Origin: a virus | Direction: 5' to 3' (one strand) | Virus record (IMG/VR): IMGVR_UViG_3300032893_000083 | Coordinates: 1-47,786 of that record | DNA length: 47,786 nucleotides | Shown: one piece after another, positions 21,601 through 39,851 of the stretch | Layout of the letters: the number at the start of each line of letters is the position of its first letter | Position numbering within the stretch: the stretch's first letter is position 1 | Notes under the pieces: generated by a model | Seen by the model: the letters and a program-made list of their open reading frames with translations, nothing else | Database searches by the model: none | Told to the model about the DNA's origin: nothing | Position numbers and translations under genes: made by a program

Positions 21601-22002
21601 CTACCCCGCCACGCAGAAGCCGCATTTCGGGTCGGCCCTATGCGGATGGCGGACACAACCTGCCAGCTTAGGCCTGGAGCCGACGGCTGGAGTCGAACCA
21701 GCAACCTGCCCGTTACGAGTGGGATGCTCTACCGTTGGAGCTACATCGGCGTGAGAAGGATCAACGGGCGTTGCCCAGGCCTGGATGCAGTCCCGAACTG
21801 CTCGCGTAGCAGTCGCGACCTGTGTTTTCACAGCCGCCCGCTCATCCTTCTCGGCCCATCGCTTCCTCGCCATCGCCTGCGCTACCGGGTCCGGATAGCA
21901 TCGGCACGTCTTACAGTGCTTCTCAGGCATATGCGCATGGTACGCTTCTGCGCATATGCGGTCAAGCGCTTGTGCGCTGCTGCCTAACTGCTTCAAAGCC
22001 AT
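21601..22002 (-). CDS. Uncertain open frame reading through the tRNA gene
   Basis: 133 residues from the ATG at 22002 (AGGGG upstream), or 139 from a GTG that directly follows the stop of the upstream gene. It has Cys clusters (KHCKTCRC, and CGFC near the end). The 3' part crosses the tRNA-Thr, so residues like VAGSTPAVGS only reflect the T arm. Either a small zinc-binding protein ending in an odd extension, or no gene at all. Confidence 0.3.
   Translation of the reverse strand: MALKQLGSSAQALDRICAEAYHAHMPEKHCKTCRCYPDPVAQAMARKRWAEKDERAAVKTQVATATRAVRDCIQAWATPVDPSHADVAPTVEHPTRNGQVAGSTPAVGSRPKLAGCVRHPHRADPKCGFCVAG
21675..21750 (-). tRNA. tRNA-Thr (anticodon CGU) with encoded CCA
   Basis: Minus-strand cloverleaf of 72 bases plus U73 and an encoded CCA. 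Acceptor stem GCCGATG/CGTCGGC (7 pairs, one G-U), D arm GCTC/GAGC with an 8-base loop, anticodon loop CTCGTAA, variable loop AGGTT, T arm GCTGG/CCAGC with loop TTCGACT. The anticodon stem is imperfect (only three C-G pairs; mismatches at 27-43 and 31-39). Thr identity follows from the CGU anticodon. An open frame reads through the gene on the same strand. Confidence 0.82.
21927..21959. repeat. 33-bp inverted repeat, operator-like
   Basis: GCATATGCGCA (21927-21937), 11-base spacer, TGCGCATATGC (21949-21959): perfect 11-bp arms, each itself rich in palindromic ATGCGCAT. A 10-bp palindrome CAAGCGCTTG follows at 21963-21972. No U-run, so not a terminator. It could bind a dimeric regulator at the boundary between the late operon and the mixed-strand region. 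Confidence 0.55.
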
Positions 22003-24970: not shown

Positions 24971-25450
24971 ATGGCTGAATTTATCATTAAAAGCTACTTG
25001 GACTTGGACGCGGAATTGTACCGCTGTGAAGCTGCGAGTCAAAAAGCAGCGGTTGAACAAGCAGTCAATCGCGGCGCGGACCTGTACGGCGCGGACCTGT
25101 ACGGCGCGGACCTGCGCGGCGCGAACTTGTGCGGCGCGAACCTGTGCGACGCGAACTTGCGCGACGCGAACCTGTACGGCGCGAACCTGTACGGCGCGAA
25201 CCTATACGGCGCGAAGCTGTGCGGCGCGAACCTGTGCGGCGCGAAAGGCATCCATACCATAGAGGGCGGCAAAGACTCGCGTAATTACGAGTTTCGCGCT
25301 ATCGAACTGCCCGACGGCTGGCGTATCAGTGCCGGTTGCCGATTTTTCACGCTCGACAAAAGCAAAAAGCACTGGCGCAATAACCCCGAATGCGCGGCCA
25401 TCGTCGCCAAGCTGATTGCTGAAACCGAAAAGCTGGATGCGGAGGGCTGA
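24971..25450 (+). CDS. Pentapeptide-repeat protein
   Basis: 159 residues. Residues about 36-90 are eleven consecutive pentapeptides of the A-(D/N/K)-L-x-x type ([15 protein letters not shown]), predicted to fold as a right-handed beta-helix. The C-terminal 65 residues contain [20 protein letters not shown], a small domain often attached to such repeats in phages. Known members (Qnr, MfpA) mimic DNA and protect or inhibit gyrase; most phage members have no known role. The repeats are nearly identical 15-bp units in DNA, suggesting recent expansion. Confidence 0.85.
25074..25245 (+). repeat. Tandem 15-bp repeats inside the pentapeptide gene
   Basis: About eleven units close to GGCGCGAACCTGTAC with changes mainly at two codons. 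Copy number could vary between isolates by slippage. Confidence 0.75.
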
Positions 25451-34881: not shown

Positions 34882-34890
34882 AAAGGTGCG

Positions 34891-34961
34891 GTGAGCGTGG
34901 GCTAACGGTAAGTCATTCGGCCTGTACCCGAAGGACGCCGGTTCGACTCCGGTCGCTCACC
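34891..34961 (+). tRNA. tRNA-like gene, anticodon UGU (Thr) with unusual C33
   Basis: Cloverleaf of 70 bases: acceptor GTGAGCG/CGCTCAC (7 perfect pairs), D arm GGCT/AGTC, anticodon stem TTCGG/CCGAA (5 perfect pairs) with loop CCTGTAC, a 4-base variable loop, T arm GCCGG/CCGGT with loop TTCGACT. Base 33 is C where nearly all tRNAs have U. No CCA is encoded (CTTG follows). A G at 34890 could extend the acceptor by one pair. Confidence 0.68.
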
Positions 34962-35055
34962 TTGTGCACGCCCAATAAATTCACGTGCTTTTCTTTTATA
35001 GCAGGGCGCCGAAATAATGACAACCGTCAAGAGAAAACCGCAGTCTCGTCCATTG

Positions 35056-35259
35056 CTATTTCCTTGCTGAAACTTGATCTTCACGTAGAAAGTTTCGTCC
35101 GATGTTGGCAAGGCCATCGCCTAATGCCTCTGCGCAGCGTCTCTCAAACGCAAATACCGCTTCATCTATCGGATCGGGCGATGTTTCGGTTGGGCATAGA
35201 TGGGGACCGCCGATTTGAAACACCCCCGATGATGGCCTTGAAAAAGTAATTGTACTCAT
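35056..35259 (-). CDS. Small hypothetical protein after the nuclease gene
   Basis: 67 residues from the ATG at 35259, which overlaps the nuclease stop (ATGA). N-terminal beta part, C-terminal helix (DEAVFAFERRCAEALGDGLA). Coupled to the recombination genes; no family is recognised. Confidence 0.6.
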   Translation of the reverse strand: MSTITFSRPSSGVFQIGGPHLCPTETSPDPIDEAVFAFERRCAEALGDGLANIGRNFLREDQVSARK

Positions 35260-35927
35260 CCCCAATACTCCTTGAGCTTTTTGTCATCGTCATACGCATC
35301 ACGGAACCGGCAAAACTGGCCCCATGCTGTTGCTATTGCCGGGTGGTCCGCCGCGAAGTGCCGATGCGTGAAGTCCCCGCCAGCCTTGCCGAATCTCACG
35401 ATATGCACTCCACCAGTAAGTATGCGGTTTGGGTGATTCTCTTGGTACAGATTGAGGTAGGCGGCGCACTGGATTAGGTAATCGTAATAGATGCCTTTGC
35501 TTGACTTCCAATCCAGCAGGCAGAGCTTATCGTCAATCATGGCAATGGCATCGGGCGTCCCGCCAAAGCATACTGTTTCCGATACCAGCGACATCTCTTG
35601 TTCCACTACGGTCAGGTGCGATTGGCGCTCCCACAGCAGGAAGGATTCATACGCCTGATTCGCCATCTTAGCCATGTCGTCGGTGAACGTGGCGGGCGGC
35701 TTGGGCATCTCGGTTCCATTGATGTGCGCCTCTACCAGCGCATGGCAGAACGTGCCAACGTCGGCGGCTTCGTCACGCTTCTCGTAGAGCGTAGCGGCCC
35801 CGGATTGGCCCTGTTTGAAGGCCCATTGAAGCAAACCGCCAGAATCCTTCCAGCGTCCAATGATGGTGGTGCAACCGGGAACTTTGGTCCCGTCTTTGAG
35901 TTTGTACCCTGCTCTCGGTGTCGGCAT
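35256..35927 (-). CDS. PD-(D/E)XK exonuclease, RecB/Cas4-like
   Basis: 223 residues. It shows the ordered motifs of this superfamily: GTFCHALVE (58-66, His62), GGTPDAI (122-128, Asp126), LLDWKSSKG (137-145, Asp139 and Lys141) and QCAAYLNLY (153-161, Gln153 and Tyr157). Next to an SSB-like protein and an ERF annealing protein it is probably the 5'-3' exonuclease of a phage single-strand annealing recombination set. GAGGAGACTACA precedes the ATG, directly after copy 9 of the 14-bp motif. Confidence 0.85.
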   Translation of the reverse strand: MPTPRAGYKLKDGTKVPGCTTIIGRWKDSGGLLQWAFKQGQSGAATLYEKRDEAADVGTFCHALVEAHINGTEMPKPPATFTDDMAKMANQAYESFLLWERQSHLTVVEQEMSLVSETVCFGGTPDAIAMIDDKLCLLDWKSSKGIYYDYLIQCAAYLNLYQENHPNRILTGGVHIVRFGKAGGDFTHRHFAADHPAIATAWGQFCRFRDAYDDDKKLKEYWG

Positions 35928-35939
35928 TGTAGTCTCCTC

Positions 35940-35953
35940 TCACGCGGGCGTTA
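35940..35953 (-). repeat. Dispersed 14-bp motif, copy 9
   Basis: Coding strand TAACGCCCGCGTGA; its TAA is the stop of the SSB-like gene, and the ribosome site of the exonuclease gene follows directly. Confidence 0.72.
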
Positions 35954-36184
35954 GAACGGAATATCGTCATCGTCAACCGAGCGACCGCTGCTTTGCTGAT
36001 CGTCCTTTGGCCTGATTTTGAACGCGACGTACTTTTCGTGGTCCTTTGTCTCGTTGGTCCAGCCGCTCAACCAATACTCCACGCCATCGACTGTCATGGA
36101 GCCGGTTGAATCGGGGTCTTTTGGGCCGCGCTTCTTCTTGTTCTTAAACAGCGACCCGCTCATGTCCTTCTGCTGATAAGCCAT
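35951..36184 (-). CDS. SSB-like protein with DDDIPF tail
   Basis: 77 residues from the ATG at 36184 (GAGGAGGAAACG upstream). MAYQQKDMSGSLFKNKKKRG, then SMTVDGVEYWLSGWTNE and KYVAFKIRP, a small OB-like beta pattern known in phage genomes. The C-terminus DDDDIPF matches the acidic hexapeptide tail by which bacterial SSB binds partner proteins. It may bind single-stranded DNA or recruit host SSB partners. It lies between the ERF and exonuclease genes. Confidence 0.7.
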   Translation of the reverse strand: MAYQQKDMSGSLFKNKKKRGPKDPDSTGSMTVDGVEYWLSGWTNETKDHEKYVAFKIRPKDDQQSSGRSVDDDDIPF

Positions 36185-36198
36185 CGTTTCCTCCTCTA

Positions 36199-36987
36199 TC
36201 AAAAATCAATATCCGGCTGTTCTGGCGGTTGCGTCACTCCTGCCGCTGTCCCGCTCTTGGCAAATTCTTCAATCTCCCGTATCAACAACTTGCCAGACCC
36301 CATCGACAGCTTTTTAGCCGCGCCGCCTAGCGTGGTTTCTGCTAGGGCTTCCACACAGGTAGGGTCGGCGTCCATCTCTTTCAAGCGGCCCCGGAACCAC
36401 TTCGGGCCTTCCTCATCGCCCATTGCCGCCCGTAGCTTTTGCACCAGCGTAGAGGCTTCCTTGGCCGTGAGCCGCCCTATCTGACTGGCGGGTGTCTGGC
36501 TGATGCCGCTATGCTTGGCGCGGCCCTTGTCGGTATCGTGCGGCGCGTCGGCTTCGGGATCATCGCCTACCCGCATCATTAGGGGCTGGCTCAAGGCGTA
36601 CTTGAGGGCATTAGTCATGGCCTTCGCACTGGCCTTGTCGCCGCTGTCCCGACCCTCTCCGATGCTTGCCACACTCAATCGTTCCCCGCTGTCGCCGTCG
36701 CAAAAGACGTAATCCAGCGTCACGATGATACGGGCATCCGTGCGGACTTCACCCCGGCTGTTTGTGGCTTCAATCGTACTGGCAGCGAACGCAAGATTCT
36801 CGCGCGATAGAATCACGTTGACTGCCGCCAGCCGGTCGCCAATCTCCCCCGCAATATCTTCGGCGCGCAGGTAGTCGTAGTTCTGGTGGGTATTGCGCCC
36901 TTTCTTTTCGATGTTCTTCAATTCGCGCCGTATGCTCGCGAGCTTCTTGATCAGCCCGACCGGCACGGCGTTATCTTTGTCTGCCAT
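36199..36987 (-). CDS. erf: ERF-family single-strand annealing protein
   Basis: 262 residues. NYDYLRAEDI (36-45) and SIGEGRDSGDKASAKAMTNA, then LKYAL (108-132) are hallmark stretches of the ERF (essential recombination function) superfamily. After about 150 residues a less conserved linker and a helical C-terminal part follow, ending in an acidic PDIDF. ERF anneals complementary single strands in recombination and end repair. Its start overlaps the stop of the upstream gene (TAATG). Confidence 0.88.
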   Translation of the reverse strand: MADKDNAVPVGLIKKLASIRRELKNIEKKGRNTHQNYDYLRAEDIAGEIGDRLAAVNVILSRENLAFAASTIEATNSRGEVRTDARIIVTLDYVFCDGDSGERLSVASIGEGRDSGDKASAKAMTNALKYALSQPLMMRVGDDPEADAPHDTDKGRAKHSGISQTPASQIGRLTAKEASTLVQKLRAAMGDEEGPKWFRGRLKEMDADPTCVEALAETTLGGAAKKLSMGSGKLLIREIEEFAKSGTAAGVTQPPEQPDIDF

Positions 36988-37411: not shown

Positions 37412-37576
37412 ATGGACAGACACACAACCTATCAGGTGAAGGTGCGGATGCCCGTCGAACTACATAAACGGCTCCGTGTATGGGGCGCGACACAGGAACC
37501 ACCTTTGAGCGTTCCAAAGGCCGCGCTCAAGTTGCTCGACAAAAACACGCCGCAAAACGGCCAGAGGGAGAAATAA
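37412..37576 (+). CDS. Arc-like ribbon-helix-helix regulator
   Basis: 54 residues. YQVKVRMPVELHKRLRVWGA, then SVPKAALKLL matches the Arc/Mnt ribbon-helix-helix pattern (strand with alternating residues, M-P-x-E-L, two helices). Such proteins are dimeric DNA-binding repressors. No ribosome site is seen, and the promoter is very near, suggesting leaderless translation. Its stop overlaps the ATG of the RAMP-like gene (TAATG), so it is probably the regulator of the array locus, acting on the inverted half-sites upstream. Confidence 0.72.
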   Translation: MDRHTTYQVKVRMPVELHKRLRVWGATQEPPLSVPKAALKLLDKNTPQNGQREK

Positions 37577-38409
37577 TGAAATCGAAAACGAAAACTGTAA
37601 CAAACGAGACGATTCAAGTTCTGCGGCTGGAAATGAGCCAACTGCATTTCTGCATTCTCGGTCAAAGCCCGCTCATCTACAATGCGGTCAGCGAGAAAGC
37701 GAAACACGAACTGCTCTATCCGGGTGGCCGCAAGAGCGCCGTCGAACGCGCGGGCAATCTCAAGCATCAACCGCTCGATGAATACCGCAATTCCACCTAC
37801 CAGTTTGCCGATGATGAACAGCCGAGCAAGCCGGTGACACGCCTATTCGTACCCGGCGCAATGTTCAAGGCGGCGATGGCGACCGCCGCACTCGACATCG
37901 AAGGGATCAAGAAGACGGAACTGGAACGGCTCTTGTGGGTCGAACCCCGTAAGATTCCGGTATTCGGGGTTCCGCAACTCTTGATGAGCATCACCCGTTC
38001 CAGCGACATCAATCGGACACCCGATGTTCGCACCCGCGCTATCCTTCCCGAATGGGCGTGTTTCGTCACGGTCAATTTCGTCCGTCCCAAGCTCAATGAG
38101 ACTTGCGTGGGCAATGTGCTGGCGAGCGCCGGAATGATTTGCGGCATTGGCGACTGGCGGCAACAGAAGGGGTCGGGCGATTATGGCCGCTTTGAAATCG
38201 TCGCCAAGGATAACCCCGCTTTCGTCCGGCTGACAAAAACTACCGGACGGGAAATTCAAGATCGCGCATTAGCTGCTCCATCAGCATTCGATTTAGAAAC
38301 AGAACGATTGCTGAATTGGTTTCAAGATGAAACGAAAAAGCGGGGGCAACATCTAAACGGCGCTACCCCAAAAGTGGACTCGGCAGGCCAAGTTACGGCT
38401 ATTGATTAA
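37576..38409 (+). CDS. RAMP/Cas7-like protein next to non-coding arrays
   Basis: 277 residues from the ATG at 37576 (TAATG with the RHH gene; AGAGGGAG upstream). After an initial strand (VLRLEMSQLHFCILGQSPLI) come RLFVPGAMFKAAMATAA (89-105), which resembles the hydrophobic-Pro-Gly-x-x-hydrophobic-Lys-x-A motif of RAMP proteins, DVRTRAILPEWACFVTVNFV (150-169) and a late glycine-rich segment, GIGDWRQQKGSGDYGRFEI (190-208), like the RAMP G-rich loop G-x-G...G-x-G/Y-G-x-F. RAMP folds (Cas7, Cas5, Csm3) bind RNA along the guide. No nuclease residues are obvious. The gene has no cas neighbours; it is followed by the period-5 array. I read it as an RNA-binding RAMP-like protein, with the function unproven. 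Confidence 0.6.
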   Translation: MKSKTKTVTNETIQVLRLEMSQLHFCILGQSPLIYNAVSEKAKHELLYPGGRKSAVERAGNLKHQPLDEYRNSTYQFADDEQPSKPVTRLFVPGAMFKAAMATAALDIEGIKKTELERLLWVEPRKIPVFGVPQLLMSITRSSDINRTPDVRTRAILPEWACFVTVNFVRPKLNETCVGNVLASAGMICGIGDWRQQKGSGDYGRFEIVAKDNPAFVRLTKTTGREIQDRALAAPSAFDLETERLLNWFQDETKKRGQHLNGATPKVDSAGQVTAID

Positions 38410-38424
38410 ATATACTTTAGCCGC

Positions 38425-38930
38425 AATGGAAAGATACGGTGCGATACGGTCGGTTGAGGTGTGTTCAGGTGAGATCGGATGAGGCCGCCTTGGTTGGGTC
38501 TGTTACGGTCCTCTCAGGTGGGTTGCGGTATGGAAAGGCCGCTTTGGACAGGACGCGCAAGGAGCGTTTAGGTGCGGATTGGTAGCGTTAGGCCGCTTTG
38601 GTTGGGTGTGAAAGATTCGGAATGGACTGCTCCGGTCTGGCCGCTCAGGATAGGACGAGTCAGGACAGGAAATGAAAGTTCTGGTAGGTCTGGCCGATAT
38701 GATCTGGAGCTTCGAGATAGGAACGGTCAGGAATGGCAGCGTATGATCGGTCGCGGTAACGCCGATATGGAGAGGCAGTGTGGGGTTTGTTCGGATGCGA
38801 TTCGGTGAGCAATGGTCGGGCTGCTGAGATGCGATTCGATGGCGTGCGGTCGAATCGGGTCGGGTAAGTTAACGCCGCTCAGGTATGGAAGATCAGGCAT
38901 GTAGCGGTCTGATTAGGTTCGGCAGGTGAT
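38425..38930 (+). repeat. Non-coding period-5 G array 1 (about 500 bp)
   Basis: No plausible gene lies between 38410 and 38947. In the first 170 bases a G recurs every fifth base: of 23 lattice positions from 38428 to 38538, 19 are G, and from 38547 to 38592 another 9 of 10, with many of these followed or preceded by a second G. The three bases between are variable. The rest keeps the same look with shifts of one or two bases. Some units recur (AGGCCGCCTTGGTTGGGT at 38482 and, with one change, at 38590), but there are no exact long repeats, spacers or palindromes. The plus strand is rich in G and poor in C. Confidence 0.8.
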
Positions 38931-38947
38931 AACAAAGGAGATCGAAA

Positions 38948-39424
38948 ATGGACAAGTTGATAATTGTAAAGGAACTGACAAGGATCGAGGATAGCGAAGG
39001 CCGCTTGACGCCCGATGCGGTAGTCAAGGCGGCGCAAAGCCCGAAAAGCCCGCTGCATCGGTTTTTCGAGTGGGACAATACAGAAGCGGCGCGGAAGTAC
39101 CGCATTGAACAGGCGCGCGAGCTAATCCGCGAAGTGCGAATCGAAATGACCGTCCACGAAAAGACGATCCAGACGGTCGCCTACGTCCGCGATCCTTCCG
39201 CGCCGCCAAACCGACAAGGTTATCGTAGCGTTGTGAAGTTGGCCGATGAACGGACCGAGGCGTGGACGGCAGTAGAAGCCGAATTTCAACGGGCGTTAGG
39301 GGCATTGCGGCGGGCGCGCGACATTGCCACGGCACTAGACTTTGCTGACGAAATCGACCGCCTGCTGACCGATTTGACTAATCTCAGCGGGACACTTGGC
39401 GAGAAAGTAAAACTCGCCGCTTAA
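38948..39424 (+). CDS. Conserved-looking phage protein between the two arrays
   Basis: 158 residues with AAAGGAGATCGAAA before the ATG. GRLTPDAVVKAAQSPKSPLH, then RFFEWDNTEAARKYRIEQAR is a pattern (L-T-P-x-A-V-V-x-A-A...S-P-L-H-x-x-F-E-W-D) that I have seen in phage proteins of unknown function. The middle is beta-type (MTVHEKTIQTVAYVRD), and the C-terminal part is helical (FQRALGALRRARDIATAL). It is flanked on both sides by the G-lattice DNA, so it may be a partner of the RAMP-like protein or the array RNA. No enzymatic residue is evident. Confidence 0.7.
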   Translation: MDKLIIVKELTRIEDSEGRLTPDAVVKAAQSPKSPLHRFFEWDNTEAARKYRIEQARELIREVRIEMTVHEKTIQTVAYVRDPSAPPNRQGYRSVVKLADERTEAWTAVEAEFQRALGALRRARDIATALDFADEIDRLLTDLTNLSGTLGEKVKLAA

Positions 39425-39440
39425 GATTGCCATTATGCAA

Positions 39441-39600
39441 TCTGGTCAGATTTGGGCCGTCAGATTAGGCAAGAATTGGAGCGGTCGGGCCGCTATGGAG
39501 TGGTATCGTGGCATAAGTTCTGGCGGGGCGTCATAAGGCCGCTGAGATGACGACAGGATGGGCGAGTTTTGGAATAGTGCGGAAAGGTAAGGACAGAAAG
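39441..39600 (+). repeat. Non-coding period-5 G array 2 (about 160 bp)
   Basis: Between two genes on the plus strand. G occupies 444, 449, 454 and 459 (added to 39000), then after a one-base shift 463, 468, 473, 478, 483, 488, 498, 503 and 508, that is 13 of 14 lattice points. The same C-poor, GG-rich style continues to the ribosome site of the next gene at 39599. Confidence 0.75.
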
Positions 39601-39611
39601 GAGAATTGACC

Positions 39612-39851
39612 ATGGTAACTGAAAGCAGGATACCGCCTGCGCCGGACCTCGGAGCGGAGTTTCGGGCGAAGGGCAACAAGGACCACGCCATCGGCAAAGC
39701 CCGCTGCGACCTGAACGTGCTGATTGGCGAGTTGGACATGGCGGCAACCGATATGATCTGGGGTGACACCCCCAAGCGGCCCATTGCCGACATCAAGGCG
39801 GATTGCGACCGGGCGTATGCGGCGTTTATGGAAACGGTCACGCGGGCGTGA
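39612..39851 (+). CDS. Small hypothetical protein
   Basis: 79 residues from the ATG at 39612 with AGGAG 8 bases upstream. Helical (KARCDLNVLIGELDMAATDM, then ADIKADCDRAYAAFMETVTR). It ends V-T-R-A-stop, written by copy 10 of the 14-bp motif. It lies directly after array 2 and may belong to the same transcript. No family is recognised. Confidence 0.65.
   Translation: MVTESRIPPAPDLGAEFRAKGNKDHAIGKARCDLNVLIGELDMAATDMIWGDTPKRPIADIKADCDRAYAAFMETVTRA
39838..39851 (+). repeat. Dispersed 14-bp motif, copy 10
   Basis: TCACGCGGGCGTGA, perfect six-base arms; its TGA is the stop codon of the gene, and the next ATG is 5 bases further on. Confidence 0.72.

What the first reader, a model, noticed from the sequence alone, without database searches (positions are those of the whole stretch)
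37576..38409. RAMP/Cas7-like protein outside any cas locus, next to the array
The 277-residue protein has a Pro-Gly-x-x-Phe-Lys-x-A segment and a late glycine-rich loop (G-x-G-D-W-R...G-D-Y-G-R-F), as in RNA-binding RAMP proteins. It lies directly before the period-5 array. Cas7-type proteins bind guide RNA in regular steps. A RAMP-like protein beside regularly spaced non-coding DNA suggests a phage RNA-guided system, perhaps against rival phages or host genes.
Basis: inference. Interest (0 to 1): 0.9.

Follow-up and report, generated by a model that had tools for sequence, protein, structure and literature searches.

The report
Phage RNA-guided VIPR locus with array
A bacterial virus carries a small CRISPR-like protein beside a string of RNA guides written in a gapped five-letter code, most likely to silence rival viruses; such "VIPR" systems were first described in a 2026 preprint, so this is a good new example rather than a new kind.

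Summary
The observation and most of the interpretation hold. The 277-aa protein has a Cas7/Csm3 (RAMP) fold (AlphaFold pLDDT 85.6; the best PDB matches are Csm3/Cas7 subunits, VIA Z 9.1). Its family profile finds the solved SUSP1 Vipr protein (PDB 36pp, E 1.5e-11). The neighbouring DNA is a real array with a 4.86-nt G period (spectral power 38.1; maximum of 500 shuffles 10.4). Its units are T/A-N-N-G-G, with GCCGC junctions separating guides of about 9-13 units. Nearly every homologous locus with enough flank has the same array on the gene's strand (85/86 and 67/69; distant flanks 1 and 0). A second conserved gene (phrog_15946) lies beside it in 75 of 80 loci. All this matches VIPR (Viral Interference Programmable Repeat), published as a preprint in April-June 2026 (PMC13142463): Vipr RAMP plus vrRNAs of alternating GGY/NN, recognising DNA through NN pairs with a one-base skip. 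One relative's guide matches another phage's prohead-protease gene under that rule at 24 of 26 bases, exactly between two junctions. No convincing target was found for the window's own guides. Verdict: a new VIPR member, in a distinct clade with a longer Vipr and a looser array.

The parts
37576..38409 (+). vipr gene: Cas7/Csm3-like RAMP, 277 aa, with a clade-specific C-terminal helical extension (about residues 213-262)
   Evidence: phrog_4652 E 9.7e-16; AF2 pLDDT 85.6; Foldseek and VIA hits to Csm3/Cas7; profile hit to SUSP1 Vipr 36pp E 1.5e-11
38410..38947 (+). Array 1: about 105 units of T/A-N-N-G-G, about 9 candidate guides
   Evidence: G period 4.86 nt, power 38.1 vs shuffle maximum 10.4; unit profile T 60% / N / N / G 83% / G 64%
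38420..38424 (+). Junction GCCGC (start of the first guide); further 4-nt junction units CCGC/CCGA/CTGC at about 38485, 38539, 38593, 38641, 38694, 38763, 38820, 38875
   Evidence: GCCGC occurs 6 times vs 0.37 expected in shuffles; positions
38425..38484 (+). Candidate guide 1, 12 units, NN = AT AA AC GC AC CG GA GT CA GA CG GA
   Evidence: segmentation
38489..38538 (+). Candidate guide 2, 10 units, NN = TT TG CT AC CC CA GG GC AT AA
   Evidence: segmentation
38543..38592 (+). Candidate guide 3, 10 units, NN = TT CA CG AA GC TA GC TT AG TA
   Evidence: segmentation
38948..39424 (+). Partner gene, 158 aa (phrog_15946), candidate vipr-accessory protein (vap)
   Evidence: homologue beside vipr in 75 of 80 loci; found in nearly the same phages as vipr; AF2 pLDDT 94.7, no confident PDB fold match
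39425..39612 (+). Array 2, about 3 candidate guides, CCGC junctions at 39490 and 39539
   Evidence: power 13.4 vs shuffle maximum 11.7
37412..37576 (+). 54-aa possible ribbon-helix-helix protein whose stop overlaps the vipr start (TAATG), likely the same transcript
   Evidence: RHH_10 E 0.0092, below the curated cut-off; sequence

Best explanation
A VIPR (Viral Interference Programmable Repeat) locus of a tailed phage. The two arrays are transcribed on the + strand and yield vrRNAs of about 9-13 five-nucleotide units. Vipr subunits coat each vrRNA, one per 5 nt; the GG(T/A) part is held by the protein and the two variable bases of each unit pair with DNA, with one skipped base between pairs. 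The bound complex silences a gene of a competing phage or prophage; the partner protein probably helps at the DNA. Shown here: RAMP fold, homology to SUSP1 Vipr, array periodicity and unit structure, near-universal linkage of gene, array and partner gene, and one strong guide-target match in a relative. Inferred from the preprint: transcription, RNA loading, DNA binding by the 1-nt skip rule, repression, and phage competition as the purpose.
For: Fold: all top Foldseek PDB hits are Csm3/Cas7 chains (E 8.6e-5, prob 1.00); VIA Z 9.1 over 157 residues. Membership: profile to PDB 36pp 'SUSP1 Vipr protein' E 1.5e-11; hhalign prob 97.8 with phage SUSP1's protein, including GVGDWRP..FGRF. Array. Linkage: 85/86 long-clade and 67/69 short-clade loci carry the array within -1.5/+2.5 kb, distant flanks 1 and 0; partner gene in 75/80 and in nearly the same cultured phages. 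Guide punctuation: 4-nt units recur mostly every 8-12 units, in line with the 9-16 repeats per vrRNA in the preprint. Targeting: in the window's clade, L172's 13-unit guide matches L158's prohead protease at 24/26 bases exactly between two CAGG junctions, skip base = wobble; other-clade guides match vipr, terminase and portal genes; short-clade guide clusters under skip 1: 18 vs 4 and 6 shuffled, other skips at background. Mechanism and biology: PMC13142463.
Against: No natural target was found for the window's own guides. Its units are looser than canonical (fifth base G in 64%, first base A in 22%). In the long clade the aggregate skip-1 enrichment is absent apart from the single L172 match (12 vs 9 and 13 shuffled), and in a larger database it is weak (55 vs 41 and 44). 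The partner protein is not detectably related to SUSP1 Vap1. The preprint's supplement could not be read, so the type could not be assigned.
Confidence: 0.93

Rival explanations
1. The arrays are DNA-level elements (replication origin, packaging or partition site) and the RAMP-like protein binds the DNA lattice directly.
For: The arrays are non-coding, and in this window a recombination module (ERF recombinase, SSB, exonuclease) lies next to the locus.
Against: The fold is an RNA-binding RAMP homologous to Vipr, shown in the preprint to bind vrRNA (PMC13142463). Strand polarity is fixed relative to vipr. The NN positions are near-uniform in base use, unlike a binding site, and some guides match phage genes under the skip rule.
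Confidence: 0.03
2. A degenerating VIPR copy: the looser lattice and missing targets mean the array is no longer functional.
For: Fifth-position G only 64%, irregular units and internal 4-nt slips in several guides, weaker array 2.
Against: vipr and the partner gene are intact and keep the conserved residues. Array 1 keeps phase over 538 nt with recurring junctions. Relatives such as L007, L009 and L011 also show weaker lattices, so looseness may be normal in part of this clade.
Confidence: 0.1
3. A member of CRISPR-Cas proper (for example a minimal type III/IV effector with an odd array).
For: Csm3/Cas7 fold.
Against: No other cas genes were recognised nearby, no PADLOC hit for either protein, no CRISPR-type repeat of constant sequence and length; the closest solved relative by sequence is Vipr.
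Confidence: 0.01

Closest known systems
VIPR systems of Escherichia phage SUSP1 and a Pseudomonas fulva prophage (type II; PMC13142463; PDB 36pp)
   Same: Homologous RAMP protein, arrays of NN plus GG-pyrimidine pentamers on the gene's strand, a small accessory gene next to vipr, phage-encoded.
   Different: Window Vipr is longer (277 aa; SUSP1 195 aa) with a C-terminal helical extension. Guides follow one another in tandem, separated by a 4-nt CCGC unit, whereas SUSP1 vrRNAs are separate and carry a structured 3' tail. The partner protein is phrog_15946, not detectably related to SUSP1 Vap1.
VIPR-like loci of Mycobacterium phages Saal and Brocalys and Gordonia phages UmaThurman and Ecliptus (unannotated; found here)
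   Same: Same Vipr family (phrog_4652) and same partner gene; NNGGC/NNGGT arrays.
   Different: Short Vipr (about 200 aa conserved region), regular NNGGC units with CAGG junctions; the array may lie upstream of vipr (Saal, Brocalys).
CRISPR type III Csm3/Cas7 backbone subunits
   Same: RRM core, glycine-rich loop and overall fold, Z 9.1; periodic binding along a guide RNA is the known role of Cas7.
   Different: Single RAMP, no Cas10/Cas5/Cas6, no CRISPR repeats, period 5 rather than 6.

Membership tests
VIPR | RAMP-fold protein homologous to characterised Vipr | tested here: met
   Profile hit to PDB 36pp SUSP1 Vipr E 1.5e-11; hhalign prob 97.8; Csm3/Cas7 fold
VIPR | Intergenic array of pentamers with conserved GGY and hypervariable NN | tested here: met
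   Period 4.86, power 38.1 vs shuffle maximum 10.4; unit profile T/A-N-N-G-G with near-uniform NN. Looser than canonical: A in 22% at the Y position, second G 64%
VIPR | 9-16 repeats per vrRNA | tested here: met
   Window guides of about 9-13 units between junctions; clade-wide mode 8-12 units between 4-nt units. Guide boundaries are inferred from junctions, not from RNA
VIPR | Accessory (vap) gene next to vipr | tested here: inconclusive
   A conserved partner gene is present in 75/80 loci, but whether phrog_15946 is one of vap1-6 could not be checked; unrelated to SUSP1 Vap1 by hhalign
VIPR | Target recognition by NN pairs with 1-nt skip | tested here: inconclusive
   One strong match in the window's clade (L172 to L158, 24/26) and enrichment in the short clade, but none for the window's own guides
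VIPR | vrRNA transcribed and bound by Vipr | not testable with these tools
   Needs RNA sequencing and pull-down
VIPR | Vipr phylogenetic type (I-VII) | not testable with these tools
   Supplement not readable; on the tree here the window sits in a 28-row clade (SH-aLRT 100) apart from SUSP1
CRISPR-Cas (class 1) | Linked further cas genes | tested here: not met
   Neighbours are ERF, SSB, exonuclease, primase and small phage ORFs; no PADLOC hit for either protein
CRISPR-Cas (class 1) | CRISPR array with constant repeats | tested here: not met
   No such array in the tandem-repeat scan; the array has pentamer units and 4-nt junctions instead

The most novel reading that the evidence does not exclude
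The window belongs to a distinct VIPR type: a long Vipr whose extra C-terminal helical domain and the phrog_15946 partner replace parts of the type II complex, with tandem guides punctuated by a 4-nt unit (CCGC or CAGG) and no long structured tail, aimed at conserved motifs of phage structural genes such as the prohead protease.
Probability: 0.35. Interest if true: 0.6.

Novelty: new member of a known kind. Interest (0 to 1): 0.48.

Why it matters
VIPR is proposed to be an ancestor of CRISPR and the first RNA-guided system with a gapped code. This locus, found from raw sequence alone, belongs to a large phage clade (over 400 relatives reported in one viral collection) whose Vipr is longer and whose guides are packed in tandem. 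It provides a concrete test of whether the code and the 1-nt skip rule hold far from the one phage and one prophage studied so far, and a candidate partner protein of unknown fold.

Tried and rejected
CRISPR-Cas membership was rejected (no cas neighbours, no CRISPR repeats). A known structured RNA in or near the array: Rfam found nothing at E<=1. Promoter and terminator consensus scans found no + strand site. Targets of the window's guides: exact 16- to 18-base gapped searches of viral contigs gave 2, 0, 19, 1 and 12 stretches. Guide-1 hits lost the match outside the searched pairs, including an in-frame small-terminase-like hit (L088). Guide-11 hits were perfect in one portal-like protein family but out of wobble phase, and in one unidentified protein (L184) in phase; for a 9-pair guide with 19 stretches returned, neither was taken as a target. 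Guide 3 had no match with up to 3 mismatches in 38 related phage records. Aggregate skip-rule enrichment at hit level (83 vs 4) was mostly a few guides hitting many related vipr genes, so the cluster-level counts are used instead. A larger database gave only weak aggregate enrichment. The partner protein's model had no PDB match at E<=0.001; VIA rows cover only its C-terminal helical hairpin and are uninformative. The host could not be inferred: the large terminase is under 30% identical to its best-listed relatives.

Full report
What was claimed.

The protein. The ORF 37576-38409 is real. Pfam has no match; PHROGs gives phrog_4652, unknown function, E 9.7e-16, and all 55 homologues aligned here hit the same family. 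An AlphaFold2 model from that alignment has mean pLDDT 85.6 and pTM 0.80. Foldseek against the PDB lists CRISPR Csm3/Cas7-type chains at the top (best E 8.6e-5, probability 1.00), and VIA-align 2 gives Z 9.1 over 157 residues to Csm3. Z 9 alone would be modest, but the list is consistently RAMP. The family profile also finds PDB entry 36pp, 'SUSP1 Vipr protein', at E 1.5e-11, and hhalign pairs it with the phage SUSP1 protein at probability 97.8.

The array. From 38410 to 38947 G recurs with a period of 4.86 nt: power 38.1, shuffle maximum 10.4. Segmentation gives units T/A-N-N-G-G with near-uniform second and third bases. A 4-nt unit, CCGC (in the context GGCCGCTNNGG), recurs every 48-69 nt; GCCGC occurs 6 times against 0.37 expected. 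These junctions delimit about nine guides of roughly 9-13 units. A shorter second array lies at 39425-39612.

Linkage. I fetched 80 relatives from viral contigs with a general profile, and 13 from bacterial genomes and 80 rows from viral contigs with a profile of the window's own clade (404 relatives reported in the last scan). Among loci with more than 1.5 kb of 3' flank, 85 of 86 in the long clade (window included) and 67 of 69 in the short clade carry a strong G-periodic array on the gene's strand within -1.5 to +2.5 kb; distant flanks gave 1 and 0. A second gene, 38948-39424 in the window (phrog_15946), is encoded beside vipr in 75 of 80 loci. A reciprocal search with it retrieves nearly the same cultured phages as vipr does: 27 Mycobacterium, 5 Gordonia, one cyanophage. 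Gene, array and partner form a unit.

What it is. A literature search found PMC13142463, a bioRxiv preprint of April 2026 (version 2, June), describing VIPR: phage-encoded ancestral RAMPs with vrRNAs of alternating GGY/NN, 9-16 repeats, recognising dsDNA through the NN pairs with one skipped target base between pairs, acting on competing phages, with seven types and accessory vap genes. Its model phage SUSP1 is among the homologues retrieved here (hit H67). The window locus is therefore a VIPR locus.

Where it differs. The window Vipr lies in a strongly supported clade (28 of 58 rows, SH-aLRT 100) of proteins with a conserved C-terminal helical extension. SUSP1 vrRNAs are separate and carry a structured 3' tail (preprint), whereas here guides follow one another, separated only by a 4-nt unit. 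Across loci the commonest such unit is CAGG and the spacing is mostly 8-12 pentamers. The window's lattice is looser than canonical. The partner protein is not detectably related to SUSP1 Vap1 and its confident model has no PDB match. The preprint mentions staggered and other array architectures; its supplement could not be read here, so whether this clade is already one of its types is open.

Testing the code. Using guides from all loci against the held loci, guide clusters with at most 2 mismatches in 20 numbered 18 under a 1-nt skip in the short clade against 4 and 6 in shuffles, with 0, 2 and 3-nt skips at background. In the long clade the aggregate showed no excess (12 vs 9 and 13), but one match is striking: a 13-unit guide of L172 pairs with a caudovirus prohead-protease-like gene in L158 (around ALDVRALVDHD; identified from the sequence by my own knowledge of the family, not by a profile search) at 24 of 26 bases, starting and ending exactly at the CAGG junctions, with the skipped base on the codon wobble position. 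Other guides match terminase-like, portal-like and vipr genes of other phages (the terminase and portal labels are likewise by eye). A larger set of related phage DNA gave only weak aggregate enrichment (55 vs 41 and 44). For the window's own guides, searches of viral contigs and of 38 related phage records found no convincing target.

Mechanism. Shown: fold, homology, array, linkage, and one strong guide-target match in the clade. Inferred from the preprint: + strand transcription, vrRNA loading, one Vipr per pentamer, NN pairing with a 1-nt skip, transcriptional repression of rival elements, and help from the partner protein.

Verdict. I file it as a new member of a known kind, with a fair chance that its clade is a distinct type.

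Noticed in passing
24971-25450 (+): Pentapeptide-repeat protein (PF00805, E 3.4e-32) with a 15-bp tandem repeat; it gives a second, coding period-5 signal in C that is unrelated to the VIPR array.
   Followed up: yes
37412-37576 (+): 54-aa possible ribbon-helix-helix ORF (RHH_10 E 0.0092, under the cut-off) whose stop codon overlaps the vipr start (TAATG), suggesting coupled expression and perhaps regulation.
   Followed up: partly
L001:3120-3365, L004:3120-3370, L002:4125-4450, L003:4110-4340: Cultured Mycobacterium (Saal, Brocalys) and Gordonia (UmaThurman, Ecliptus) phages carry unannotated NNGGC arrays beside 'hypothetical' vipr genes; in UmaThurman part of the array is annotated as gene gp40.
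   Followed up: partly
L172:5301-5366 and L158:950-1010: A relative's 13-unit guide matches a prohead-protease-like gene of another VIPR-carrying phage at 24/26 bases under the 1-nt skip rule.
   Followed up: yes
L030:4602 to the vipr gene of L023; L074:5051 to vipr genes of L015 and others: Guides of some loci match the vipr genes of other VIPR loci, as if VIPR systems attack each other.
   Followed up: partly
34890-34962 (+) and 21675-21750 (-): Two tRNA-Thr genes (anticodons tgt and cgt) in the phage record.
   Followed up: no
35256-36987 (-): Recombination module: exonuclease (phrog_298), SSB and ERF-type annealing protein, divergent from the VIPR operon.
   Followed up: partly
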